DNA from: Caenorhabditis remanei | Taxonomy: Eukaryota; Nematoda; Chromadorea; Rhabditida; Rhabditidae | Direction of reading: 5' to 3' | Length of the DNA stretch: 64,000 bases | Assembly (NCBI RefSeq): GCF_010183535.1 | Contig: NC_071333.1 | Span: 3,348,001-3,412,000 of the forward strand | Shown here: in pieces, positions 14,022-27,264 of the stretch | Layout of the letters: every line of letters begins with the position of its first letter | Numbering within the stretch: the first letter of the stretch is position 1 | Notes under the pieces: generated by a model | Told to the model about the DNA's origin: nothing | Database searches by the model: none | The model's input: the letters and a program-made list of their open reading frames with translations, nothing else | Translations under genes and position numbers: made by a program

Positions 14022-15617
14022 ATTGGGCGCAAGAGAGTATGCAAAGAGGAGAGGGTGCTCTCTCCTCATGATGGGAACAGAGGAGGACGATGACGTGATG
14101 TTTCCCAGTTTTATGGGATTGAGGAAAAAAAGAAATGTTCATAAGTTTTCTATCATCAAAGGCCATCGATACTAAAAGAATGAAAAGGCGCAATTGAGCA
14201 AGATCAATTGCGCAACAATGGGAGCGACCATGCACTGCTTTAGTTGTATGCGACAAAACAAAAATAATAATATACAGTGCTCCACATAATGATACGCCAC
14301 CCTTGAAAATTTTGAAAATCTCAAAAATGAGAAATGATGAATGGGTCCAAAACAATTACCGGCCGATAATGAAAAATGCCAGATGGACCCTCAAACTGCA
14401 CAGAACTCATCAACCAGTCAAATTTCAAAAGAAACAACCTGTTCGGGAGGTACACTCTGTCCATAGGTTGTGATTCCCGTAGATTATGGTACGAAGATTA
14501 TTTCGGAAGGACATCCACGCTTTCGGACCGACACAAACGCAGAACCGCGCAGTTTGCTTCGAATTTAAGATCCACATGCTCTTAAAATTAATGTCAAAAT
14601 GAGCTTTCTCGTGTCTGCAGAAACTGTTTATTGAGTTTTATTTGAAAATCAGATTGGGAAACTCAGAGAAATGTAAAACGCATCGGCTATAACAAAAATT
14701 TATCGTGATAACCTTTTAAAATTTGCCAAAAACTTACAAAGAAGATGCTGAAGTTGAGTGAGAGTTACGGTAACTCCTCATTGAACTGAAAACCGGCTTA
14801 TTCTTTTTGCAAATCATGTCGGCATTCTCGGTATTCAACTGTGTTGTCATAATTAAGTTTCTACTTGTTGTTAATTATGATTTGAAAGCCGCATTCCACT
14901 TCAATGAGCTTACCGTAACTCTCACTCAACTTCAGCATCTTCTTTGTAAGTTTTTGGCAAATTTTAAAAGGTTATTACGATAAACCTTTGTTATAGCCGA
15001 TGGGTTTTACATTTCTCTGAGTTTCCCAATCTGATTTTCAAATAAAACTCAATAAAAAGTTTCTACAGACACGAGAAAGCTCATTTTGACATTAATTTTA
15101 AGAGCATGTGGATCTTAAATTCGAAGCAAACTGCACGGTTCTGCGTTTGTTTCGGTCCAAAAGCGTGGTGGTCATTCCAAAATACTCTTCGTACCATAAT
15201 CTACGGGAATCACAACCTATGGACAGAGTGTACCTCCCGAACTGGTTGTTTCTTTTGAAATTTGACTGGTTGATGAGTTCTGTGCAGTTTGAGGGTCCAT
15301 CTGGCATTTTTCATTATCGGCCGGCAATTGTTTTGGACCCATTAATGTAAAAAACAATAAAATAACAGAAAACACGGTTTTGATCTGATCAGTGCAAAGA
15401 AAATTAAAGAAATAATGCAAAAAATGGAAAGTGTCGTATCATTTTGTGGATTGGAAAAAACGAAAAAATTGAAAAATTGGATTTTTCTCAATTTGCTATA
15501 TCAAGTTTGTTTTTGTTATGGAACTAATAAATGTTACTCATAAAGAGTTTTCAATACGGTTATGGACGAGATTTCATCATTTCTCATTTTTGAGATTTTC
15601 GAAATTTTCAAGGGTGG

Positions 15618-15997
15618 TGTCACATGATAGAGGAACGCAATCCTTTCGGAGGGCGTTCCTTCGTTTCTGTGTCTCTCTCTCTCTCTCCCGCACGGGTTTG
15701 TGACACCCGCTTGCCAGTAGAGAGCTAGGACACCAAGACTAACACCCGTCTTGAGGTCTTTCTTTATTTTAATTACTCTTTCCCTTTATCTAGTTTTATA
15801 TGTTTATCTCCCTTGAATTCCTCATTCAGTATTAGTCTCCTGATTTAACTATAACCTACCTCTTTATCTTTATCTTTAGTATCTCTCCCATAATAAACCT
15901 CTATGTATTCTAAAAGACCGTGTTCTAAAGTGTTGGATATAAGTCAAAGTGGAAGGACAAGGAATAAGATCCACCATGGAACGTCAACCTTGTTAAA
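15618..15997 (+). repeat. 5' LTR (380 bp)
   Basis: Begins TGTCACATGATAGAGG and ends CAACCTTGTTAAA, so it has a TG start but not the usual CA end. It contains a (TC)n tract near 15672 and AATAAA at about 15892 as a possible poly(A) signal. No base difference from the 3' LTR was seen on reading. Confidence 0.92.
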
Positions 15998-16015
15998 TGG
16001 AGGTCCCGTCACCGA
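15998..16015 (+). other. Primer binding site
   Basis: TGGAGGTCCCGTCACCGA lies immediately after the LTR. The TGG start is complementary to a tRNA 3' CCA end, as expected for minus-strand priming. I could not identify which tRNA it matches. Confidence 0.65.
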
Positions 16016-17455
16016 ACTCTATTATGATCCAGTTTCACTGAGAGTGTTTTGAGTGTTACCAATTCCCACTTTTCCCTCACTTTAACTCTTCTTAGTAAAC
16101 AGAAGAATGGTCCTAGCTCTACTCCAACCGCACGGAAAAGGTTGTAGTGTCACCTTGGACGGTTTTTATGAGCATTGTTTTTAGTAGTTCAGAGGTGCTT
16201 TTAACAATATTTGGTCCAGGTGTGGAGTAATTAACCCACCTCCCACTCATAAAATAACCCTCTGTATTTTTTCTCCATCTCAAGTACAGGGTAATCCAAG
16301 TGTTCTGGAGGTAAGTTTTGTATCTGTTAAACCGAAAAATCTCCACACAAATTCTCTCAAATCGTCCCTCGGCTCACCTAGGTCTATAATCACGTCCCCC
16401 TCCCAATTCATGTATCCACCCCAATATTGGTAACCATAAGTTTAGTTCCATTTTATTCAACATTAGGACGACACCTGATGGGGACCGCTGTACTTGCCCC
16501 GGTCCTTTACTCAATTCTGTGGTTCCCAGACCTGGAATATCAGGCAAAGGCAAATAGCAGGCTGAGAACTGTTTATTAATTATATATATAGTAAGATTAT
16601 TAGTCGCTCGTTCACGTCCCTCGCGAGAATGACCACAGCTCAGCGAGTGCAGCTCGTGACGCCTGGGCTTTGGATGAAGGGCCCGCACAAGGGAGGAGCG
16701 CATTCTGAAAGAAGAAAAAGAAGAAGAAGAGCCTGTCGTAAAACTAAGCCAAGGGCGATTTCCGACTCAGTAGCACCTAGACGCTGGGAAGCTAGCTATG
16801 ACCTAAATTTCTTTTCGATGCCCCGTAAAATTCTTAAGTTTTGATATGAGTCGGCGATATGGATTAGTCAACCATATCTTATCCACCTGGTCATGGATAG
16901 TGTGAGAGATACAGATCCAAACACTCTCTGACGTACGGCGTCAGAAACAGAACCGACACAAGATTGATAGATAGATTGTTTACTGTTTGTGGCATCGGCA
17001 AAATCTATCTCTAATCTTATGCATTTGAAGTGCACCATCCCGTAAACAAAGTCATTAAGTGCAATCCGACCCGATTAAATATTGCAAACGATAGCGTAAA
17101 CAATATGCATCTCGTATCGGATTACGCGCATAATTAATGACAGCTGTTCGAGATGGCACCGCGGGGTACGCCTATCTGGCAAATGCGGTAAACAACATGG
17201 AAGAAGCCCCGCCCCAGAGATCGTGGAGCCAGTAAGACAGAACAGCCACATTCATTCAACACTCACCCGACGCATTCGTCCACTGCTCAGTTCATCGTTT
17301 GTTTCGTTTCTTTTCTTTTCTTGAATCTTAACTTTCGTTGACTTGCCGTGGCGATTGCCGCTGTTCTATTCTCTCGTCTTATTGACCGTCTACTTTCTCT
17401 CATCTTCCATTCTTCGCTTCCTTACTCCTCATCTCGTTTCACTCGTTCTTCTTAA
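16016..17455 (+). other. Retrotransposon 5' leader
   Basis: About 1.4 kb between the PBS and the open gag frame. Only short frames occur. It ends in a pyrimidine-rich stretch (17290-17460). No packaging signal can be recognised from sequence alone. Confidence 0.5.
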
Positions 17456-18199
17456 TTCAAATACTTACTTTTTCCATCAATCCTGGACAAGAAGACGAAG
17501 TACAAGAATCCACGGAATCCAACTGGACCAACGGACCGACGTACGAGGAGCCAACGGAAAGCAGAAGACTTAATTGCTGAAGCTGCAACAACTGCATCAA
17601 CTGCGTCCACTGCATCGATTGCATCGACTACATCGGAGACAACTGCAGCAACATCGTCAACGACACCGACACCAACTTCATCGAATCCGACGTCCAACAC
17701 TTCACCGGCCGTATCACCATCAAGTTCGTTCCAAACTCCAACCGCATCTCCATCGTCATTGGCTGAAAAGAAGACCCCAGAAGTAAGAAAAACTCTTTTT
17801 CCATTCTCAGTCAAGGAAGACTACTCACCGGCGCTCACAAAAAACTCTACGCCAGAAGAAGTCAACGCGTTTCTGGAGAAATTATTGCGGCTGAGATCAC
17901 CTGGATCGAGAGCACCAACTTCAGGGAACCAGGAGCAGACGGATCTCTCACCACCAGGAAAATTCGTAAGAACCTCCACTCCTATTTCTTCTCGTCAATC
18001 TTCTCCTTGTATATCTCCATTCCACTCTCCTCTCAAATCCGATTCTCCAAACTCAACTCTCTCACTATCGGAGTATTTTGATTCCCTTGAGTCGAAGACT
18101 CTCGTTGCTTCTCCCCCACCTGGAAGCTACAACTTTGTTAGTGTGAAAGTTGAAAAAGACCCACCGTTGGACACAACTGAGAATTCGGAGAGAACAATC
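17456..18199 (+). other. In-frame upstream extension of gag without ATG
   Basis: After an in-frame TAA at about 17453 the gag frame stays open with no ATG until 18200. It has coding character: Lys/Arg-rich, then Thr/Ala/Ser repeats (ATTASTASTASIASTT), then Pro/Ser-rich. A TTG at 17759 is the only near-cognate start I noted. Translation could reach this part by an upstream spliced exon or a non-AUG start; otherwise it is a relic. Confidence 0.45.
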
Positions 18200-21100
18200 A
18201 TGGGGGACGAGCAAAAGCCACCGACAGCCCCATACAATGATCGCTTTGAGACGGAGGAGACGCAGATCGACGTCACCGGTGGGACGGAGTGGAAGTCCAC
18301 CGGAGACGTATTGCGGCTGTTGGAGAGGCGAGTTCGGAAATTCGGTGATGGCAAAGCCGCAGACATCACCGAGTGGCTGGACTCCCTGGCGCGGACCTTC
18401 TATCGAATCAAGGTCCCGTCGGAGGCAGCAGTTGGGATTCTGCCGTTTTTTCTGGAGGATGCAGCCCTCCACAAATACGACAGAATCCCAGCTGAGGAGA
18501 AGAAGACCTGGGCCGGCGTCACCAAGGCACTCCTCAAGGCTCATGAGTGCGATGCCGACAAGGAAATAGCTCTGCAGGAGATCAGTAATACCCATCAAGG
18601 GAAATCATCGATTTCGGAGTATGCGGAAAAAATCAGGAAACTCGGGACGTATGCATACGACGATCTGGAAGTGGCATCCAGAGATCGGCTCCTAGCGACT
18701 CAGTTCCTGAACGGAATCAACAAGGAAATCAGAACGGAGCTGCGCCGACTCCCCACTGCTCCGAAAACTCTAAAGGAAATGGTGAACCAAGCGGAGAAAA
18801 TCGATCGACTCCTCAAAATCGAAGCGGAAGAAGATGATGATGAAGCACTGGTGGCCGTTGTCCAACAAGCCTTTCCAGCATGGCAACCTGGAAGGGGAGG
18901 ACATTTTGGAGGACGAGGCAGAAGAGAAAAGACCTACCGGAGTTTTCCCAATTACCAGGGAACACTTGGACAAGTTCAAGGATGTCAGCATTGCCAGCAT
19001 TGCCCTCATCATGTCCCTCAGCAACATCATCAGGCCCCTCCTCAGTATCACCAGGCCCCGCAGCAGTATGGTCAGCCAATGCAAGGATTTGGACACCAAC
19101 CAATCCAAGGAGCGGGATACCAGCAAATCCAAGGAGCCACACACCAACCAACCCAAGCAATTGGACACCAGAGACCGCCACCACTTCCAATCGAGGATGC
19201 TCCACCAAAGGTTGGATTCAATAACCGGACAGGTAGACCGGTTATTAACAACGTCAGTAAGTTCCTTTTGGGGTTGATGACGTTGACCCTCCTTCCAACG
19301 GCTGATTCTCTACAAGTTTGTGGATTCGGAGTGACTGGAAACGTGTTCGTCCCACCGAAGCCCATCCAGTGCACCTTCAACACGGATGTCCATTTGCAAC
19401 GCCATCAGATAGCAGTCTATGTGCCAAGGACCGAAGCGATGGAGCTCCAAGCCAACAAATGCTCCAAGACATCAATGAAGGCTCACACGTTTGGCTTTCT
19501 GACCATCTACCAGACAACCGAGACGGAAATTGGAGAGCAGGTGGAGGTAGCAGTCGAAGAGTGCAGGAAAGCGGTGCTGGAAAAGAAGTATGATGGAAAA
19601 TCGTTGGAGGAGATCTCACCTGGCTACTTCCGGACAAATACCATGGAGAACGGGACAATCAAACCTAGCTGGTTCGGAAGCAAAACGTTTGAATTCCACG
19701 AATTCACACTCCAGACCGGACACGTAGCGACCATCGACGGAAGGACAATCATCTCCAATTTGGGCAACTTGGAACAATGCTCGTTCGAGTCAGGTAGCTG
19801 CAAGGAGGATCGATTCACCATTGTCTGGGAACCTCAAATCGCCAGAAGGGAATGCCCATTCCAATACTCCTTCTCGAGTGAAGCCATCATCCACCAGGAT
19901 TACCTCGCGATCGAGGAGACTGGATTCTTTGCTGGAATTGAAAAAGATTTGAGGAAAGTGCGAACAATTCTCGATGACTGTGCAATGAACCAGGCTTTGA
20001 TGACAGATGATGGTCTTCTCATCGAACTGCCACAGATACTTTATCAGAGACCGGAGTACACTGTCTTTCAAAAAGACTCACCGTTTCCATGGAGGATAAA
20101 GAGAGCGACTGCCGGAATCAAAGGAAATCTCAACGAATGGATTGAATTTGAAATCGGGGAAAACTTCACGACTCCGTTGGTTTGGAAGCTCTATGGAAAG
20201 AAGAACCTCAAGGATGTCGCGGTGGTCAACTCTCCAATTATAGACCAAGTACTTCTTCGTGAGTTCAAAAGGTACAACGTCACCAACAATTTGCTGAGCC
20301 AACGAGCCAAATTTTATCCGGAGGACAGGAGACATCAACAATCCACTCTTCTGATTGCCCTGAAAGCTATTCGGATTGCACAGTACGCTTGGAGAGAAAT
20401 GAGAAGACTTACTTCGTTGAAGAATGGACTCACACATGCTGAGGAAACAATGTTTCGGATGATTGAACAACGAGATGCATTCATGTTCGACACGTTGCTG
20501 GAACGAGAGTTTGGGAAAAGTGAGCCAGATTTCATTCATTTGGATTCAAGTGCATTGGTTCCAAAATTCAACGAGACGAAGCTGAAAGAAATGGGAGAGT
20601 TTGCTCCAATCGATGAAGCTCAGTGGACACGGCCGACACCACCTCCCACAGAAAAACCGACGACTCCACCGAAGACAACAACAACAGCTCCACTTGTTAC
20701 ACCTCCTGTTCATACAGTCCCCGCTGCTCCTGCTATGTCTGCCAGACCTGATGCACCTGCTCCAGTGATAACATCGAACCATGCTCCGGTTATCAACCAA
20801 AACGATGTCAAATCATCAAAGGTTCGTACGAAGACAATTGAAGAGAGTTTCACCTCCACCTGCAAAGAACAATTCGCCACAAATTCCTTGTTCGACACTC
20901 TTCTTTCAATTGATCCGACTGCCGCAGTTCGCCAACTTCTGAAAAGAAAGGATATTTCTGCAAAAAGAATTGGAGAAAGCTTACTCATTTCGAAATGCAG
21001 GACAGTGACGCCATCTACAATTCATTGGGACAGGAAGGTCAACAACACTTGTTATGACTTGGTGCCAGTTACAGTGGATGGAATCATTTGGTTCCAACTG

Positions 21101-24100
21101 CCAGGATCTGAAGATTTGGTGACCGAAGCTGTGAAAATTTCGTGTGATGACCGACCAATTGGAATCCGGATGGAACATCATCGGTGGATTGGATCGGACA
21201 ACAAAGAAGTCAGCCCTCAGCAGCTCATTCGACCAAACAGGATGACTCAAGATCAATTCTTGCTGGAACCACCAAAGACTTTCTACACCAATCTCAACCA
21301 AGAAATTGGAGTTTCGACGTCTGCTGACAAGGAAAACGAGAAGAAATCCAGTCGATTCCAAAGAGATCTGCAGAAGAGTTTGATTAAGGAAGGAGTGCTG
21401 AACACAGGAATTGATCTACTCACCGATTCTGCTACAAAAGTTGGAAAATCCGCAAAAGAGCTGTACGACACCACAGTTGATAAGGTTGGAAATGGACTTC
21501 GAAATGCACTCTTCTCTATTCTGGAACTTTTCATCTGGATCGGATCGTTGATTGCTGTCATATTGGTCATCGTATGCATTGGATACGCCTATTTGAAGTA
21601 CCGAGCATTCCGGAAGGCAACAAAAGTGACCAGGAAAACAGCAATTGGATTGGCCGAATCTCTCGTGGGATTGACACAACAACTCCACATCAACAATGTC
21701 CAGATGACCAATCGACCAGCTCCACCACCACCCCAGAAAATTCGACAGAAGCCAATTGAAGAGGAATATCCTATGCTTGGAAAAGTCTGTGCAATCAAAT
21801 CGAGAAAATGGAAAGGTATCAGACCTGCTCGTACTCCGCACATTCCTCTGGAAATCGAAGGAAGACCACTGAAAGCTTTGTGGGACACGGGAGCTGCAAT
21901 CAGTTACATGCCGATGTCTTCAGTGGTGACAGATGTGGATACAAGAGGACAATTGGTGGCCCAAGCTGCAAATGGATCACCAATCAACTTCCTCGGGACA
22001 ACCATGGCAACGATCAAAATTGGTCCATATGCGATGCAACACAACTTCTTGGTATCATCAGATGTCGATTGTCCAGCTCCAGTTCTGTTAGGTGCCGATA
22101 TCCAAACAAGCATCAGTAAGAATTTTGGAAACATCAGCACAAATCTCTTCGAAGGAGTTATCGAGATTGGAGGCGTAAAAATTCCAATCAATTATGTTGG
22201 CTGTGACGAGGAAGACGAAGAAGAAAGCATCTTGGTATTTCCACAGGGAGACGTTGTAATTGATGCTAAGTCGGAAGCAGTAATCCCAGCCATCATCGAA
22301 AACTACAATCCAGAGATGGGACAGGAATTGTTGTTGGAAGATACCCAGGAAGATGGTGACGACATCTACGTGGTTGGAAGAGTGATTGCTCGTATCGAGG
22401 ATGCTGGGAAAACAATGGTTCAAGTCTTCAATCCATCTGCAACTCCAGTGCGACTCCAGAAGAAGAGAGCAATTGCCAAAGCTTCGAAGATTGGATCCAT
22501 CAAAACTTTTGATCAGGACAACGCATCACCGGAAGCTGATTGGGAATCGAAACTGCCGAAACTTCCACAGGAGACGCCTAGAAATTTTCGGATATCAGAT
22601 TGGGTAGACCTTTCGAAATCAAAACTCACCGAAAATCAAAAGGAAGTTCTGAGAGTGATCATCGACGCACATGCGGAAGCATTTGTGGGACCAGACGGTA
22701 TCCTTGGAGAGTATAAGGGAAAAATCAAACATCGGATTGATTTGGAAGATGGTTACAAAATACCGAATGCCAAGATCTACAGGATTCCATTGGAGAAGAG
22801 AGAAGAAATCGCGAGGCAGATAAAAATGATGTTGGAGCAACGAATCATACAACCGTCGGATTCTCCATTTTTGGCTCCAATCGTGTTGGTGAGAAAAGCT
22901 GATGGATTGACGTGGCGCTTCACCGTGGATTTTCGTGCTTTGAATGCCATCACCAAGCCAGTCCAGAGTGTTATCCCGAACATCCAGGAAATCTTGGATT
23001 TATGTGGAGGCCAAGAATTCTACACCAGTTTGGATTTCCAAGCGGGGTTTCATCAAATCATGGTGGAACCGGAACACTCTTCGAGGACTGCTTTCGCTTG
23101 TTTTTTGGGTGCTTTTGAGTATCTCCGAATGCCGATGGGTCTCAAAGGATCTCCAGGAACTTTCCAACGATGCATGAACGAACTCATCAAAGAAGTGCGA
23201 GCCAGAATCTTTGTTTACATCGACGACCTCATCATGACATCCAGAACAGCGGAAGAGCATCTTCAAGACATCGACGAAGTTCTCGGCAAGATCGAAGGAA
23301 TCGGGATGAAGCTGAAAGCAGATAAATCAAAATTTGCAAGAGACCACATTGTATTTTTGGGATTTATCGTATCAAAGGATGGCCTGAAACCCGATCCAGC
23401 CAAGACACAAGCCGTAAAGGAGTATCCCGTTCCAAGAACAGTCAAGGATGTCCGAGCATTCATTGGAATGGCTTCTTTTTATCGCCGGTTTGTGAAAAAT
23501 TTCTCAAAAATAGCCGCACCAATTCTGGAGTTAACCAAAAAGGATGTGAAATTTGAATGGACTACCGAGAGAGCAGAAGCATTTGAAAAGCTGAAAGAAG
23601 CACTCACTTCAGAACCAGTTCTGGTCGCACCTCAACTGGGAAAGCCGTTCGTCATCGAAGTTGATAGTTCCGGAAAAGGAGTTGGAGCAGTATTGTACCA
23701 ACAACAAGACAAGGAAGGGAAGGATCTTCGAGTTGTGGCATATGCGAGTCGAGTGTACAATACACATGAACGGAACTATGCAGCCATCGAATTGGAAGCG
23801 CTAGGATTGGTCTACGCTGTGCAACAATTTCGTCCGTATATTGACGGGGCGAAGACAACAGTCATCACTGATCACGCTCCGTTGAAGGCACTTCTACATC
23901 GAAAAGATCTGATGGGAAGACTCGGGAAGTATCAAATCGTGCTACAGGAATTCGACATCGTCATCACCTATCGACCTGGAAAGCAGAATGTGGTATGTGA
24001 TACTTTGTCAAGATATCATCCGCTGAAGAAATCCGAGAAGAATAACAAAAGACTTACCTCTCCAAAAATGCTCATCAATGCCCTCACTGCTACTCTGAAG

Positions 24101-25360
24101 ATCGATTTTGACAAGATTCGTGAAGAACAATCCGAAGATGAGAGAACTTTGGATACAAGGGAACTTCTGAAAAACTGCCTAATTCATGAAGAAATCCTGT
24201 TCAAACGAAACAACGATCGACAATGGGTCATAAGTCTACCGGCTAAAACCAAATATGGACACGTCATCGCCAAGATGGTTCACGAATCGATTTTTGAAAG
24301 TGCTCACCTTGGTTGCGAAAAGACAGAGAAACGAGTTGGTGACATCGTTTCTTGGCCGGGAATGTCGAAAGCTATTCGAGGAATTGTGGAACGATGCCGA
24401 GTGTGCCAGAAGAACAAGGATCCTGCAAAAACGAGATTGAGAGCACCGATGGGAAAATTCGAAACAACATCAGCACCATTTGAGAGAGTACATTCGGATT
24501 TTATTGGACCAATGGCCGAAACGGATAGAAAAAACAAATTCATTGCGGTTTTTGTGGATTCATTCAGCAAGTTCATCATAGCTGAAGCCGTCAGAGACCA
24601 AACAGCAGAGGAATTGTGCACCGTGTTTATGGATCGAGTGGTATCAAGATTCGGGACACCCAAAACTCTTGTGACCGACCACGGAACCAATTACACTTCG
24701 AATCAATTCAAAGAACTGTTGAAGTCGTTAGCAGTGGAACACAAAATGAGTACTCCATATCACCACGAGGCTAATGGACAAGTAGAACGTGCAAATCAAA
24801 CGATTCAACAAATGCTTCGACAGTGTGAGGACAGTCAAAATTGGGACCGAAAACTGCAAACGTTAGTCCACGCATACAACAATGCAAATAATGCTACCAC
24901 TGGGGTATCTCCACACGTTGTAATGCACGGGCAGCAGGCGAGGTCACCACTCAAAAACGCGTTGCCCGAGAATACGTTATCGACAGGAGTGATGGATCAT
25001 GTGTCGCAGGTCAGGTCAACTCAAGAGACCCTACAGAAGGAGTGTATGGAGAAGATTGAGAAAAGGTCCACGAGACAGAAGGAAAGACATGATTCGGAAA
25101 AAGTTATCAACGATGCAGCTATCAACGTTGGGGACAAGATTTTGATTCGGGAATCCAAATACAGCAAGATTGGAAAGCAATTTCGAGGACCGTTTGAAGT
25201 AATTGAAGTTAAGGAACCGAACATCACTGTCAGAATCTCTGGACCAAACACAAGATCGAAGAAGGAACGACTCAATACGGTGCACAAGAATCGATGCAAA
25301 GTGTACAAGTCGGAGAAGAAAGAAGTCCCCACAACACCGGAGGACCCCGCAGAAAAATGA
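18200..25360 (+). CDS. Gag-Env-like-Pro-Pol polyprotein, Ty3/Gypsy element
   Basis: Reading from the first ATG (context A at -3, G at +4; N-terminus Met-Gly, so myristoylation is possible) gives about 2386 residues in one uninterrupted frame ending TGA. Domains in order: capsid-like Gag about 35-220; a Gln/His/Pro-rich tail containing CQHCQHC but no CCHC knuckle; an env-like block about 350-1145 (separate entry); aspartic protease with WDTGAA near 1228 and a later LLGAD; reverse transcriptase with TVDFRALN and the YIDD catalytic box near 1673; RNase H with EVDSSGKGVGAVLY and TDHAPLKALL; integrase with an HHCC zinc motif (HLGCE...CRVCQ, about 2036-2075) and the D-D-E triad near HSDFIGP, TDHGTNY and NGQVERANQ. 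All key residues are present, so the enzyme part appears functional. Typical Ty3/Gypsy elements place env, if any, after pol. Confidence 0.93.
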   Translation: MGDEQKPPTAPYNDRFETEETQIDVTGGTEWKSTGDVLRLLERRVRKFGDGKAADITEWLDSLARTFYRIKVPSEAAVGILPFFLEDAALHKYDRIPAEEKKTWAGVTKALLKAHECDADKEIALQEISNTHQGKSSISEYAEKIRKLGTYAYDDLEVASRDRLLATQFLNGINKEIRTELRRLPTAPKTLKEMVNQAEKIDRLLKIEAEEDDDEALVAVVQQAFPAWQPGRGGHFGGRGRREKTYRSFPNYQGTLGQVQGCQHCQHCPHHVPQQHHQAPPQYHQAPQQYGQPMQGFGHQPIQGAGYQQIQGATHQPTQAIGHQRPPPLPIEDAPPKVGFNNRTGRPVINNVSKFLLGLMTLTLLPTADSLQVCGFGVTGNVFVPPKPIQCTFNTDVHLQRHQIAVYVPRTEAMELQANKCSKTSMKAHTFGFLTIYQTTETEIGEQVEVAVEECRKAVLEKKYDGKSLEEISPGYFRTNTMENGTIKPSWFGSKTFEFHEFTLQTGHVATIDGRTIISNLGNLEQCSFESGSCKEDRFTIVWEPQIARRECPFQYSFSSEAIIHQDYLAIEETGFFAGIEKDLRKVRTILDDCAMNQALMTDDGLLIELPQILYQRPEYTVFQKDSPFPWRIKRATAGIKGNLNEWIEFEIGENFTTPLVWKLYGKKNLKDVAVVNSPIIDQVLLREFKRYNVTNNLLSQRAKFYPEDRRHQQSTLLIALKAIRIAQYAWREMRRLTSLKNGLTHAEETMFRMIEQRDAFMFDTLLEREFGKSEPDFIHLDSSALVPKFNETKLKEMGEFAPIDEAQWTRPTPPPTEKPTTPPKTTTTAPLVTPPVHTVPAAPAMSARPDAPAPVITSNHAPVINQNDVKSSKVRTKTIEESFTSTCKEQFATNSLFDTLLSIDPTAAVRQLLKRKDISAKRIGESLLISKCRTVTPSTIHWDRKVNNTCYDLVPVTVDGIIWFQLPGSEDLVTEAVKISCDDRPIGIRMEHHRWIGSDNKEVSPQQLIRPNRMTQDQFLLEPPKTFYTNLNQEIGVSTSADKENEKKSSRFQRDLQKSLIKEGVLNTGIDLLTDSATKVGKSAKELYDTTVDKVGNGLRNALFSILELFIWIGSLIAVILVIVCIGYAYLKYRAFRKATKVTRKTAIGLAESLVGLTQQLHINNVQMTNRPAPPPPQKIRQKPIEEEYPMLGKVCAIKSRKWKGIRPARTPHIPLEIEGRPLKALWDTGAAISYMPMSSVVTDVDTRGQLVAQAANGSPINFLGTTMATIKIGPYAMQHNFLVSSDVDCPAPVLLGADIQTSISKNFGNISTNLFEGVIEIGGVKIPINYVGCDEEDEEESILVFPQGDVVIDAKSEAVIPAIIENYNPEMGQELLLEDTQEDGDDIYVVGRVIARIEDAGKTMVQVFNPSATPVRLQKKRAIAKASKIGSIKTFDQDNASPEADWESKLPKLPQETPRNFRISDWVDLSKSKLTENQKEVLRVIIDAHAEAFVGPDGILGEYKGKIKHRIDLEDGYKIPNAKIYRIPLEKREEIARQIKMMLEQRIIQPSDSPFLAPIVLVRKADGLTWRFTVDFRALNAITKPVQSVIPNIQEILDLCGGQEFYTSLDFQAGFHQIMVEPEHSSRTAFACFLGAFEYLRMPMGLKGSPGTFQRCMNELIKEVRARIFVYIDDLIMTSRTAEEHLQDIDEVLGKIEGIGMKLKADKSKFARDHIVFLGFIVSKDGLKPDPAKTQAVKEYPVPRTVKDVRAFIGMASFYRRFVKNFSKIAAPILELTKKDVKFEWTTERAEAFEKLKEALTSEPVLVAPQLGKPFVIEVDSSGKGVGAVLYQQQDKEGKDLRVVAYASRVYNTHERNYAAIELEALGLVYAVQQFRPYIDGAKTTVITDHAPLKALLHRKDLMGRLGKYQIVLQEFDIVITYRPGKQNVVCDTLSRYHPLKKSEKNNKRLTSPKMLINALTATLKIDFDKIREEQSEDERTLDTRELLKNCLIHEEILFKRNNDRQWVISLPAKTKYGHVIAKMVHESIFESAHLGCEKTEKRVGDIVSWPGMSKAIRGIVERCRVCQKNKDPAKTRLRAPMGKFETTSAPFERVHSDFIGPMAETDRKNKFIAVFVDSFSKFIIAEAVRDQTAEELCTVFMDRVVSRFGTPKTLVTDHGTNYTSNQFKELLKSLAVEHKMSTPYHHEANGQVERANQTIQQMLRQCEDSQNWDRKLQTLVHAYNNANNATTGVSPHVVMHGQQARSPLKNALPENTLSTGVMDHVSQVRSTQETLQKECMEKIEKRSTRQKERHDSEKVINDAAINVGDKILIRESKYSKIGKQFRGPFEVIEVKEPNITVRISGPNTRSKKERLNTVHKNRCKVYKSEKKEVPTTPEDPAEK
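19240..21640 (+). other. Env-like glycoprotein block inside the polyprotein
   Basis: About 800 residues between Gag and protease with the layout of a viral surface glycoprotein. It starts with a hydrophobic, signal-peptide-like segment (FLLGLMTLTLLPTADS, about residues 354-370). A Cys-containing ectodomain with at least five N-glycosylation sequons follows. A dibasic RIKR/A site near residue 635 could be a furin-type cleavage point. Next come a long helical, charged stretch, a Thr/Pro-rich hinge (about 20640-20720), and a single strong membrane segment (GSLIAVILVIVCIGYAY, about 1115-1131) followed by a basic cytosolic tail. No family match can be claimed by eye. A GTAAGTTCC splice-donor word lies at the signal peptide (19257). 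Confidence 0.7.
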
Positions 25361-25547
25361 TGGTCAGTCTGTTTACAATCGCTTATCTTCGGGTCAAATC
25401 TATCGTATGTTATCGGGACATTTCATCATATACCCTTCAATATTGTCTGTTAGCTGTCACATCAACCAAGAAAAAAAACATGTATGAACAACAACAACAA
25501 CAACAACAACAACAAAAAGAAGAAAAAAAAAAGAAGAACAAGAAGAC
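25361..25547. repeat. Retrotransposon 3' spacer with CAA microsatellite
   Basis: Short spacer after the polyprotein stop. Positions 25487-25515 are (CAA)n followed by A/G-rich sequence. No other feature. Confidence 0.6.
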
Positions 25548-25912
25548 TCAGCAGAGGCTATCCTCCACCTCGGGATCCTGACGACGCGACAAGAAGACAC
25601 AGAGGAGGAGAAGAAGGAGCAGGACGACGAAGCCGAATCCGACAAGAATGAAGACGGTCCAAGCTGAAAGTGTGGAGTTATTTTATTTAAAATTCTCTTT
25701 CATTTACCTCCGGATCCGCTGGCGACGGTGGTCACGACAGGAGCCGCGACAGTCGTTGTGACGAGGGGGGACGCGGCAGTCGCTGCAACCTGCTCACAAG
25801 CCTCTCCAACAAATCCCTCATTGCAAACACACTGGAACGACTCCAACACTTGCACGCAGAAACCGTGGAAAGAGCAAGCTGCGGCACAAAAGAAAGAGGA
25901 AACTCTGGACAT
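25548..25912 (-). CDS. Antisense EGF-like plus transmembrane protein gene in the retrotransposon
   Basis: On the strand opposite to the element, exon 25912-25708 encodes a six-cysteine EGF-like module (spacing C-x3-C-x5-C-x8-C-x-C-x8-C; core CSFHGFC and CVCNEGF) and a Thr/Val/Ala-rich stalk. A donor GAG/GTAAATG and acceptor CACTTTCAG bound a 44-nt intron. Exon 25663-25548 continues in phase with a membrane segment (FILVGFGFVVLLLLLLCVFL) and a short tail SRRQDPEVEDSLC, then TGA. The result is 106 aa from ATG 25912, which sits 7 nt after an acceptor (TGAATTTTCAG), so either trans-splicing or a lost upstream exon. No N-terminal signal peptide is seen, suggesting 5' truncation. It looks like a type I membrane EGF protein of host origin. 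Domain, splice sites and phase agree, so a chance frame is unlikely. Confidence 0.65.
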
Positions 25913-25919
25913 TTTTTCG

Positions 25920-26180
25920 CTGAAAATTCACAATTTTGGTGGAGAATTTGCTGCGAAAAATGGATTTTGGCATGGAAATCGTTGAAGAAAGAAGAAAATT
26001 CGAAGGAAAACGAAGGAAAACGAGGAAAAATGATGAAAATGGAAGAAAATCGAACGAAAATGGTCGTTTCTCGTAACCTGTGGTACGGTAAGCTTGGGAA
26101 TTGCTCAGCTTAAAAGCGAGGGAACATTTCGATGGCGCCGCGCCTACCGTAATCCAAATTTAAAAGTTTCCGGTTCATTT
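25920..26180. other. Retrotransposon 3' region upstream of EGF exon
   Basis: In antisense this reads like an intron or promoter before the EGF exon: purine-rich on the plus strand (GAAAACGAGG repeats) with a TTACGGTA-type palindromic word near 26090-26155. No further exon is supported. Confidence 0.35.
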
Positions 26181-26291
26181 CGGTCGTTTGGATGGTTTTC
26201 ATTGGAACTTTCGGTCGTTTGGATGGTTTTCATTGGAACTTTCGGTCGTTTGGATGGTTTTCATTGGAACTTTCGGTCGTTTGGATGGTTT
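26181..26291. repeat. 31-bp minisatellite, about 3.6 copies
   Basis: Unit starts CGGTCGTTTGGATGGTTTTC and repeats at 26181, 26212, 26243 and 26274 without visible change. It lies inside the retrotransposon 3' region. Frames through it are periodic artefacts. Confidence 0.85.
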
Positions 26292-26591
26292 AATCGGGGT
26301 CAATTGCCATTTGCTAAATGCCAGTCAATTGCCAACTGCGTGTTCTACAGTCAATGGCGTCCTTCATGTTCTTGGTTTGGATCAATTCGTAATAATAATA
26401 TTGTTGTTTATTGTGTATTAATTGGATTCTATTTTCGGTTGTATTGCATTCTTAATTGTAATTTTTGTATTATATTTTAATTTGATTTCCCTTTAGTTAC
26501 CTCTTGTCTTTTAGGAATTTACTTGTAATATCTGTGTAACTGTAGGTTCCCCAATATTTCATATAGGCTCCGAGGACGTCACAGCTCTTTC

Positions 26592-26605
26592 GGAAGAAAG
26601 GGGGA
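26592..26605 (+). other. Polypurine tract
   Basis: GGAAGAAAGGGGGA abuts the 3' LTR directly, as required for plus-strand priming. Confidence 0.85.
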
Positions 26606-26985
26606 TGTCACATGATAGAGGAACGCAATCCTTTCGGAGGGCGTTCCTTCGTTTCTGTGTCTCTCTCTCTCTCTCCCGCACGGGTTTGTGACACCCGCTT
26701 GCCAGTAGAGAGCTAGGACACCAAGACTAACACCCGTCTTGAGGTCTTTCTTTATTTTAATTACTCTTTCCCTTTATCTAGTTTTATATGTTTATCTCCC
26801 TTGAATTCCTCATTCAGTATTAGTCTCCTGATTTAACTATAACCTACCTCTTTATCTTTATCTTTAGTATCTCTCCCATAATAAACCTCTATGTATTCTA
26901 AAAGACCGTGTTCTAAAGTGTTGGATATAAGTCAAAGTGGAAGGACAAGGAATAAGATCCACCATGGAACGTCAACCTTGTTAAA
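26606..26985 (+). repeat. 3' LTR (380 bp)
   Basis: Same length and, as read, same sequence as the 5' LTR. It is followed by GTGG and then the continuation of the interrupted Tc1/mariner-type terminal repeat. Confidence 0.92.
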
Positions 26986-27264
26986 GTGGCGTATCATTAT
27001 GTGGAGCACTGTATAATATTATTTTTGTTTTGTCGCATACAACTAAAGCAGTGCATGGTCGCTCCCATTGTTGCGCAATTGATCTTGCTCAATTGCGCCT
27101 TTTCATTCTTTTAGTATCGATGGCCTTTGATGATAGAAAACTTATGAACATTTCTTTTTTTCCTCAATCCCATAAAACTGGGAAACATCACGTCATCGTC
27201 CTCCTCTGTTCCCATTATGAGGAGAGAGCACCCTCTCCTCTTTGCATACTCTCTTGCGCCCAAT

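What the first reader, a model, noticed from the sequence alone, without database searches (positions are those of the whole stretch)
25548..25912. Antisense, intron-containing EGF-transmembrane gene carried by an intact LTR retrotransposon
Between the polyprotein stop and the polypurine tract the element holds, on the opposite strand, a six-Cys EGF-like module and stalk, a 44-nt spliceable intron and a second exon with a membrane helix and short tail, all in phase. A host gene captured in antisense would keep its intron through reverse transcription, because the genomic RNA is its complement and the intron is not spliced from it. This fits transduction of a cellular gene and would give the element a second, membrane-anchored, growth-factor-like or adhesion product. 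The gene seems 5' truncated (no signal peptide found).
Basis: partly seen in the sequence, partly recalled or inferred. Interest (0 to 1): 0.9.

Follow-up and report, generated by a model that had tools for sequence, protein, structure and literature searches.

The report
Backwards EGF-membrane gene inside worm retrotransposon
A retrovirus-like jumping element in a roundworm carries, on its opposite strand, a small intron-containing gene for a cell-surface EGF-type protein, and related elements in the same genome have mostly kept that gene intact, so it probably does something for the element.

Summary
A young Ty3/gypsy-type element (15618-26985; identical 380-nt LTRs, GTGG target duplication) carries on its minus strand, between the pol stop and the 3' LTR, a two-exon gene (25912-25708, 44-nt intron, 25663-25548). 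It encodes 106 aa: a six-cysteine EGF-like module, a stalk, one membrane helix, a short basic tail. In this C. remanei genome the gene lies antisense, 3' of pol, beside 15 of 16 near-full-length RT matches of at least 65% identity (13 intact, 2 broken); the contig of the 16th ends before the site. Intact copies of five families keep the ATG, a splice acceptor just before it, six cysteines, an in-phase intron of 44-50 nt, and the helix. Families A and B show dN/dS 0.20-0.24. A public gene model has the same splice. So it is probably not 5' truncated, and it is an old, selected accessory gene rather than a one-off capture. The A/B cassette is much less diverged than pol, suggesting exchange by recombination. 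Most likely role (inferred): an N-out surface protein helping particle entry or cell-to-cell transfer. No RNA or protein evidence was available; the source gene was not found.

The parts
15614..15617 (.). target-site duplication GTGG (5' side)
   Evidence: read
15618..15997 (+). 5' LTR, 380 nt, TGTCAC...TTAAA
   Evidence: identical to the 3' LTR
15998..16007 (+). probable primer-binding site TGGAGGTCCC
   Evidence: position and TGG start; tRNA not identified
17759..25360 (+). single polyprotein frame gag - Env-like - protease - RT - RNase H - integrase (true start codon not determined)
18440..18721 (+). Retrotrans_gag
   Evidence: Pfam PF03732, 34.9 bits (cut-off 24.1)
19256..21793 (+). Env-like region, class III fusogen-like, between gag and protease (limits are those of the query used, not measured domain borders)
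   Evidence: PF24664 25.4 bits (cut-off 27) and Glycoprotein_B 24.5 (cut-off 43), both below cut-off; 5 of 5 homologues found carry PF24664; best solved-structure matches E 0.0039 and 0.0049
22895..23371 (+). reverse transcriptase
   Evidence: PF00078
24473..24763 (+). integrase core
   Evidence: PF00665
25261..26160 (.). cassette holding the antisense gene and its upstream region, 80-92% identical to family B copy L032 while pol before it (23761-25260) is 51-73%
25920..25926 (-). splice acceptor TTTTCAG, 7 nt before the ATG (trans-splice or 5' intron acceptor)
   Evidence: an acceptor sits there in all families
25708..25912 (-). exon 1: ATG, EGF-like module (codons 9-39, 25888-25796), Ser/Thr/Ala/Val stalk
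25664..25707 (-). intron, 44 nt, GTAAATGA...ACTTTCAG
25548..25663 (-). exon 2: membrane helix (codons 74-92, 25649-25593), basic tail, stop
25913..26605 (-). upstream region of the antisense gene, presumed promoter (inferred); holds a 31-nt tandem repeat at 26178-26291
   Evidence: promoter not tested, no TATAAA/TATATA found
26593..26605 (+). polypurine tract GAAGAAAGGGGGA
   Evidence: read
26606..26985 (+). 3' LTR, 380 nt
26986..26989 (.). target-site duplication GTGG (3' side)
   Evidence: read

Best explanation
It is a conserved accessory gene of a retrovirus-like LTR element, read from the strand opposite gag-pol. SHOWN: one open gene with a small in-phase intron, coding for an EGF-like module, a stalk, one hydrophobic helix and a short basic tail, with no strongly hydrophobic signal-like stretch at the N-terminus; the amino-acid sequence is under purifying selection; it lies antisense 3' of pol in five element families; and its A/B cassette is far less diverged than pol. 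INFERRED: it is transcribed from its own promoter in the region 25913-26605, matured with the acceptor at 25920-25926 (spliced-leader trans-splicing or a 5' intron) and the 44-nt intron. The antisense position lets the element carry an intron, because that intron cannot be spliced out of the plus-strand genomic RNA. The product sits N-out/C-in in the plasma membrane or particle envelope and uses its EGF module to bind a host surface protein. It thereby holds membranes together or helps the Env-like fusogen, so that particles enter or pass between cells (for example soma to germline). The fast divergence and apparent exchange of this gene fit a surface-interaction role.
For: Gene and splice; public models P0001-P0004, P0003 identical to my L027 splice. 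EGF: Pfam, PDB profile hits led by Notch EGF chains, also teneurin and selectin, AF2 model of the public relative P0001 on 4 sequences (mean pLDDT 72; helix 66-105) whose best-ranked Foldseek hits are Notch1 EGF chains, none at E <= 0.001. Antisense beside 15 of 16 near-full-length RT matches at >=65%. Selection: dN/dS 0.20-0.24 A versus B. Acceptor just 5' of the ATG in every family, against 38 of 2173 ATGs in the window. Topology: 0-1 basic residues in 15 aa before the helix and 2-7 in 15 aa after it, in 7 of 7 proteins checked. Env-like domain in the same element. Cassette exchange. Precedents for small or antisense-coded membrane proteins in transfer or entry: MDG1-group sORF2 (PMC11952523, passages) and HIV-1 ASP (PMC12568219, abstract and outline).
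Against: No transcript or protein evidence was available here. No TATAAA/TATATA upstream and no AATAAA-like signal downstream of the window gene was found by a script scan. Two B copies (L034, L035) have lost the reading frame of the gene; the pol frame of L035 stays open (2647 aa), while that of L034 shows a break near residue 2196. Partial RT fragments at C6:21249978, C1:12915525 and C1:15856930 (72-86% identical) have no EGF hit nearby. No myristoylation motif, and an ectodomain longer than FAST proteins. The element already has an Env-like domain, so a second entry factor is not obviously needed. Nothing tested shows binding, surface location or transfer.
Confidence: 0.42

Rival explanations
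1. The protein is a host-directed signal: a membrane-anchored EGF/Notch-type ligand that changes the state of the host cell (for example germ-cell proliferation) in the element's favour.
For: Best PDB profile matches are Notch EGF modules; TGF-alpha, betacellulin and epiregulin appear lower in the list. Foldseek also lists EGF-receptor ligands.
Against: Pfam's best family for A, D and L028 is the teneurin EGF type and for C the tenascin type, not a ligand family (B and E were not scanned). EGF modules of any kind resemble one another. No DSL domain was listed (E <= 0.1).
Confidence: 0.2
2. The protein blocks re-infection: it binds the element's receptor or Env in the same cell and stops superinfection by related elements, which would favour rapid diversification between families.
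For: The gene diverges much more than pol between D and E (RT 85% aa, EGF gene 30% aa) and appears to be exchanged as a cassette between A and B.
Against: No interference data; the same pattern fits attachment equally well.
Confidence: 0.15
3. What matters is the antisense RNA, which regulates or silences gag-pol expression; the protein is secondary.
For: Antisense transcripts with regulatory roles are discussed for retroviruses and plant elements (passages of PMC7264820 and PMC10186651). The intron differs at only 4-5 of 44 nt between A and B.
Against: Purifying selection acts on the amino-acid sequence (dN/dS 0.20-0.24), and six cysteines plus the helix are kept where the DNA of A and C is only 39-48% identical.
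Confidence: 0.08
4. A recent one-off capture of a host gene fragment into this element, without function.
Against: The gene is present in five families whose RTs differ by up to about 38% and is under purifying selection.
Confidence: 0.03

Closest known systems
Antisense additional ORFs between pol and 3' LTR (aORF-3R) of plant LTR elements: Grande gene23, RIRE2, Retand TRP28 (PMC7264820, PMC11963269)
   Same: Same place and orientation, conserved within an element lineage; for Grande an own promoter is reported (passages read).
   Different: Those described are nuclear, predicted DNA-binding, or without clear similarity; 'intron' does not occur in either text. This one is in an animal element, has a conserved intron, and encodes an EGF membrane protein.
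MDG1-group sORF2 / reovirus FAST proteins (PMC11952523)
   Same: Small single-helix protein of an LTR element, N-out/C-in, basic patch after the helix (prediction for ours; passages).
   Different: Theirs are all in the forward orientation, have an ectodomain of about 30 aa and mostly a myristoylation motif; ours is antisense, has an EGF module, and the element also has an Env-like domain.
HIV-1 ASP
   Same: Antisense-coded, membrane-associated protein; reported to enhance entry (abstract).
   Different: ASP lies opposite env and has no known homologue; ours lies outside the polyprotein and has a known module.
HTLV-1 HBZ / APH proteins
   Same: Antisense retroviral genes with spliced RNA (passages of PMC10186651).
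   Different: Described as transcription factors or regulators, largely nuclear; no EGF module is mentioned there.
Cer1 of C. elegans (CERV)
   Same: Caenorhabditis Ty3/gypsy element with an extra spliced gene whose last exon lies 3' of pol (passages of PMC10309623).
   Different: CERV is a sense-strand nuclear RNA-export protein; 'antisense' and 'EGF' do not occur in that text.

Membership tests
Ty3/gypsy LTR retroelement (Metaviridae-type) | paired LTRs, target duplication, polypurine tract, PR-RT-RH-IN order | tested here: met
   the 2 LTRs are identical over 380 nt
antisense aORF-3R class of LTR elements | open gene antisense to gag-pol, between pol and 3' LTR | tested here: met
   antisense 3' of pol beside 15 of 16 RT matches (the 3' LTR was checked in the window, and by similarity in A/B copies; not in C, D and E)
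antisense aORF-3R class of LTR elements | conserved in all or most copies of a lineage | tested here: met
   3 places with partial RT fragments have no hit
antisense aORF-3R class of LTR elements | transcribed from its own promoter | not testable with these tools
   no RNA data
EGF-like domain (Pfam PF23106 / PF00008) | score above curated cut-off and six cysteines | tested here: met
   26.6/24.3 and 24.2/21.5 for the window protein; family C passes only EGF_Tenascin (26.9/25)
FAST / sORF2 proteins | short (sORF2-like 63-107, FAST 80-200 aa), one helix, basic residues after helix | tested here: met
   106-122 aa
FAST / sORF2 proteins | N-terminal myristoylation motif MGxxxS/T (most, not all members) | tested here: not met
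   all family proteins begin MS, MQ or MV
FAST / sORF2 proteins | ectodomain of about 30 residues | tested here: not met
   helix begins at residue 57-74
FAST / sORF2 proteins | causes cell-cell fusion | not testable with these tools
   bench assay needed
transduced host gene | a homologous host gene with the same architecture | tested here: inconclusive
   none found (only C. remanei members of the same family plus one weak multi-EGF hit); only proteins sharing short words are seen. L028 has no pol in the 9 kb read and could be a host copy

The most novel reading that the evidence does not exclude
Caenorhabditis Env-bearing LTR elements carry a two-part surface system: a class III-like fusogen inside the sense polyprotein, and an antisense-coded, intron-bearing EGF membrane protein that acts as its attachment or triggering partner. 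The gene travels between element families as an exchangeable 0.9-kb cassette that changes host-cell binding. The antisense position is what allows a retroelement to keep a spliced cellular-type gene.
Probability: 0.27. Interest if true: 0.88.

Novelty: new variant of a known kind. Interest (0 to 1): 0.72.

Why it matters
In the papers seen here, antisense genes of LTR elements are described mainly from plants and from a few vertebrate retroviruses, and those are mostly nuclear or without recognisable domains. A conserved, selected, intron-bearing gene for a cell-surface domain in an animal element shows a route by which retroelements can keep spliced genes. It also gives a testable candidate for how such elements reach new cells. 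It can be tested in a laboratory nematode, beginning with stranded RNA data.

Tried and rejected
Truncated host fragment: rejected as unlikely, because ATG, acceptor and cysteines are shared by all families. Chance frame: rejected by dN/dS and the family-wide intron. Strict vertical descent with pol: not supported, since A/B RT dS is 2.7-2.9 but EGF gene dS about 0.6, and D/E RT is 85% but the EGF gene 30% identical. With few sequences and saturated RT sites this is strong but not formal proof of recombination, and constraint on the cassette's DNA could add to it; the EGF tree has weak nodes. Host or element status of L028 (C1:12395517): unresolved; no pol was found in 9 kb, and a relative exists (CRE_23632). 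Outgroup: in L069, 1.6 kb lying 2.6-4.2 kb after the start of the 52%-identical RT at C6:5273104, I saw no EGF gene by eye in six frames; in families D and E the gene lies up to about 4.7 kb after the RT start, so it could be missed. Copies at 48% and lower were not read, and no EGF hit near the next ones (C98:236501, C2:848440) appeared. Signals: no TATAAA/TATATA upstream and no AATAAA-like signal downstream of the window gene; AATAAA was seen by eye downstream of the gene in L026, L028 and L067. The bacterial promoter scan does not apply to a nematode and was not used. Folding the Env-like region was not attempted, because the aligned rows would have been whole polyproteins.

Literature: 10 searches, of which I saw the rows listed, not every paper counted. 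None of the listed titles and abstract openings reports an antisense EGF gene in an LTR element; the library holds only open-licence papers, so this is not proof of novelty. Of 7 papers fetched I saw passages of six (PMC10309623, also its outline and abstract; PMC7264820; PMC11952523; PMC5408684; PMC11963269; PMC10186651) and the abstract and outline of PMC12568219.

Full report
WHERE IT IS. The window is G000:C6:3348001-3412000 of a 130.5-Mb genome. Public proteins GCK72_012394 and GCK72_011586 of Caenorhabditis remanei lie on contigs of exactly the lengths of C4 (25,790,997) and C3 (17,877,849), so the genome is that C. remanei assembly (the strain name PX506 is recalled). The element spans 15618-26985: LTRs 15618-15997 and 26606-26985 are identical over 380 nt, with a GTGG target duplication and a polypurine tract at 26593-26605. 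It is therefore a young insertion, and two further copies in the genome are 100% identical over the 365-nt gene and over the RT stretch. One frame, 17759-25360, holds gag, an Env-like region, protease, RT, RNase H and integrase.

THE GENE. On the minus strand: TTTTCAG (25926-25920), seven bases, ATG at 25912, exon 1 to 25708, a 44-nt GT-AG intron 25707-25664, exon 2 25663-25548. The product has 106 residues with module cysteines at 9, 13, 19, 28, 30 and 39 (spacing 3-5-8-1-8), a Ser/Thr/Ala/Val stalk, a helix at 74-92 (hydropathy 3.25) and SRRQ after it. Pfam accepts EGF_Teneurin and EGF above their cut-offs. A profile of the family finds Notch, WIF-1, delta-like, teneurin, selectin and other EGF-bearing chains among solved structures (64 sequences at E <= 0.01, 60 shown). 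The AF2 model of the public relative P0001 has mean pLDDT 72, with low confidence in the stalk; the best-ranked Foldseek hits are Notch1 EGF chains, none at E <= 0.001.

OTHER COPIES. RT of the window finds 105 matches, 105 of 146 candidates having been scored. Sixteen are near full length (393-394 of 394 residues) and at least 65% identical. Fifteen of these have the EGF gene 3' of pol on the opposite strand (coordinates). The sixteenth lies on contig C87, which ends at 19,131, about 0.6 kb after its RT match. Families by RT identity to the window: A 100% (3 copies), B 81% (6), C 75-76% (2), D 65% (2), E 65% (2). Of shorter RT fragments at 72-86%, the one at C6:21263954 has a degenerate EGF gene (L029), while those at C6:21249978, C1:12915525 and C1:15856930 have no EGF hit nearby. 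An E-type copy lacking the first part of exon 1 lies at C3:15208014 (L071), and a lone gene at C1:12395517 (L028) has no match to the window polyprotein within the 9 kb read. Of the 15 copies beside near-full-length RT, 13 are intact and 2 (L034, L035) have a broken exon 1. In 1.6 kb read 3' of the next RT (52%, C6:5273104) I saw no EGF gene by eye (L069), but that stretch does not cover every position at which families D and E carry it.

WHAT IS KEPT. The intact copies of all families keep: the ATG, 1-9 nt after a splice acceptor; six cysteines and the glycines; an in-phase intron of 44, 47, 50 and 46 nt in A/B, C, D and E; and a helix with 0-1 basic residues in the 15 residues before it and 2-7 in the 15 after it (7 of 7 proteins). 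TTYCAG within 10 nt upstream occurs at 38 of 2173 ATGs of the window. The acceptor-to-ATG distances are 7 (A/B), 3 (C), 9 (D), 6 (E) and 1 (L028), not of one phase, so an upstream coding exon in a fixed frame is unlikely and the ATG is probably the start (inference). One public model (P0002) does add 27 residues upstream, joined at that same acceptor, which speaks the other way for family D. P0003 equals my L027 splice exactly; P0001 is a B-like protein of 106 aa.

SELECTION AND EXCHANGE. A against four intact B copies: dS 0.58-0.65, dN 0.12-0.16, ratio 0.20-0.24. Other pairs tested: B-B 0.18, 0.22 and 0.37 (3 of 6 pairs), C-C 0.18, D-D 0.16, E-E 0.50, the last with an identical intron but a visibly more diverged exon 2, which looks like a mosaic. 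Between A and B, RT synonymous sites are near saturation (dS 2.7-2.9), yet the EGF gene has dS about 0.6. Nucleotide identity of A to L032 is 51-73% along the end of pol (23761-25260), 80-92% from 25261 to 26160, 56-65% at 26161-26460, then 70-80% into the LTR. The simplest reading is that a cassette of about 0.9 kb, holding gene and upstream region, was exchanged between families after pol had diverged. Conversely D and E RT are 85% identical but their EGF genes only 30%. The gene's history is thus partly uncoupled from that of pol.

FUNCTION. Shown: a selected gene for a protein with an EGF module and a membrane helix. Inferred: expression from the antisense strand, N-out topology without a cleaved signal, and a surface role. 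I favour attachment, or holding membranes together, in entry or cell-to-cell transfer. The element also has an Env-like region: PF24664 is just below cut-off in the window; 5 of 5 homologues found (three C. japonica, one C. brenneri, one C. remanei) carry PF24664 in their precomputed domains, only the candidates sharing most words having been scored; and six solved sequences match at E 0.004-0.29, three named envelope glycoprotein B, two BALF4 and one ORF8 (that the last two names are herpes gB is recalled). Small or antisense membrane proteins are reported to serve transfer or entry in fly MDG1-group elements (PMC11952523, passages) and HIV-1 (PMC12568219, abstract). A signalling ligand, an interference factor and a regulatory RNA are rivals. 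Against any protein role stand the missing RNA evidence, the absent TATA-like and AATAAA-like signals in the window, and two broken B copies.

WHAT IS KNOWN. [quoted passage not shown] Those are described as nuclear, predicted DNA-binding, or without clear similarity, and the word intron is absent from both texts. sORF2 proteins are all in the forward orientation and differ in two tested features (myristoylation motif, ectodomain length), so this is not filed as one. Verdict: new variant of a known kind.

Noticed in passing
window 19256-21793: An Env-like, class III fusogen-like region lies between gag and protease inside the same frame as pol, an order I believe unusual (recalled); homologues occur in C. 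japonica, C. brenneri and C. remanei.
   Followed up: partly
window 14022-15346 and 26986-27264: The element sits beside inverted repeats: 14340-15346 is inverted-repetitive (91%) and 26986-27264 matches 14022-14300 inverted at 99.3%, so it may have inserted into another repeat.
   Followed up: no
window 26178-26291: A 31-nt unit repeated head to tail in the upstream region of the antisense gene; this stretch aligns poorly and with gaps to family B.
   Followed up: no
L067 and L068: Two E-type copies share an identical 46-nt intron and 90% of exon 1 protein, but exon 2 is visibly more diverged (72% over the whole protein), as if exon 2 had been exchanged.
   Followed up: partly
L028 3991-4380: An EGF membrane gene of the same build without pol within the 9 kb read: orphan, host copy or remnant.
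   Followed up: partly
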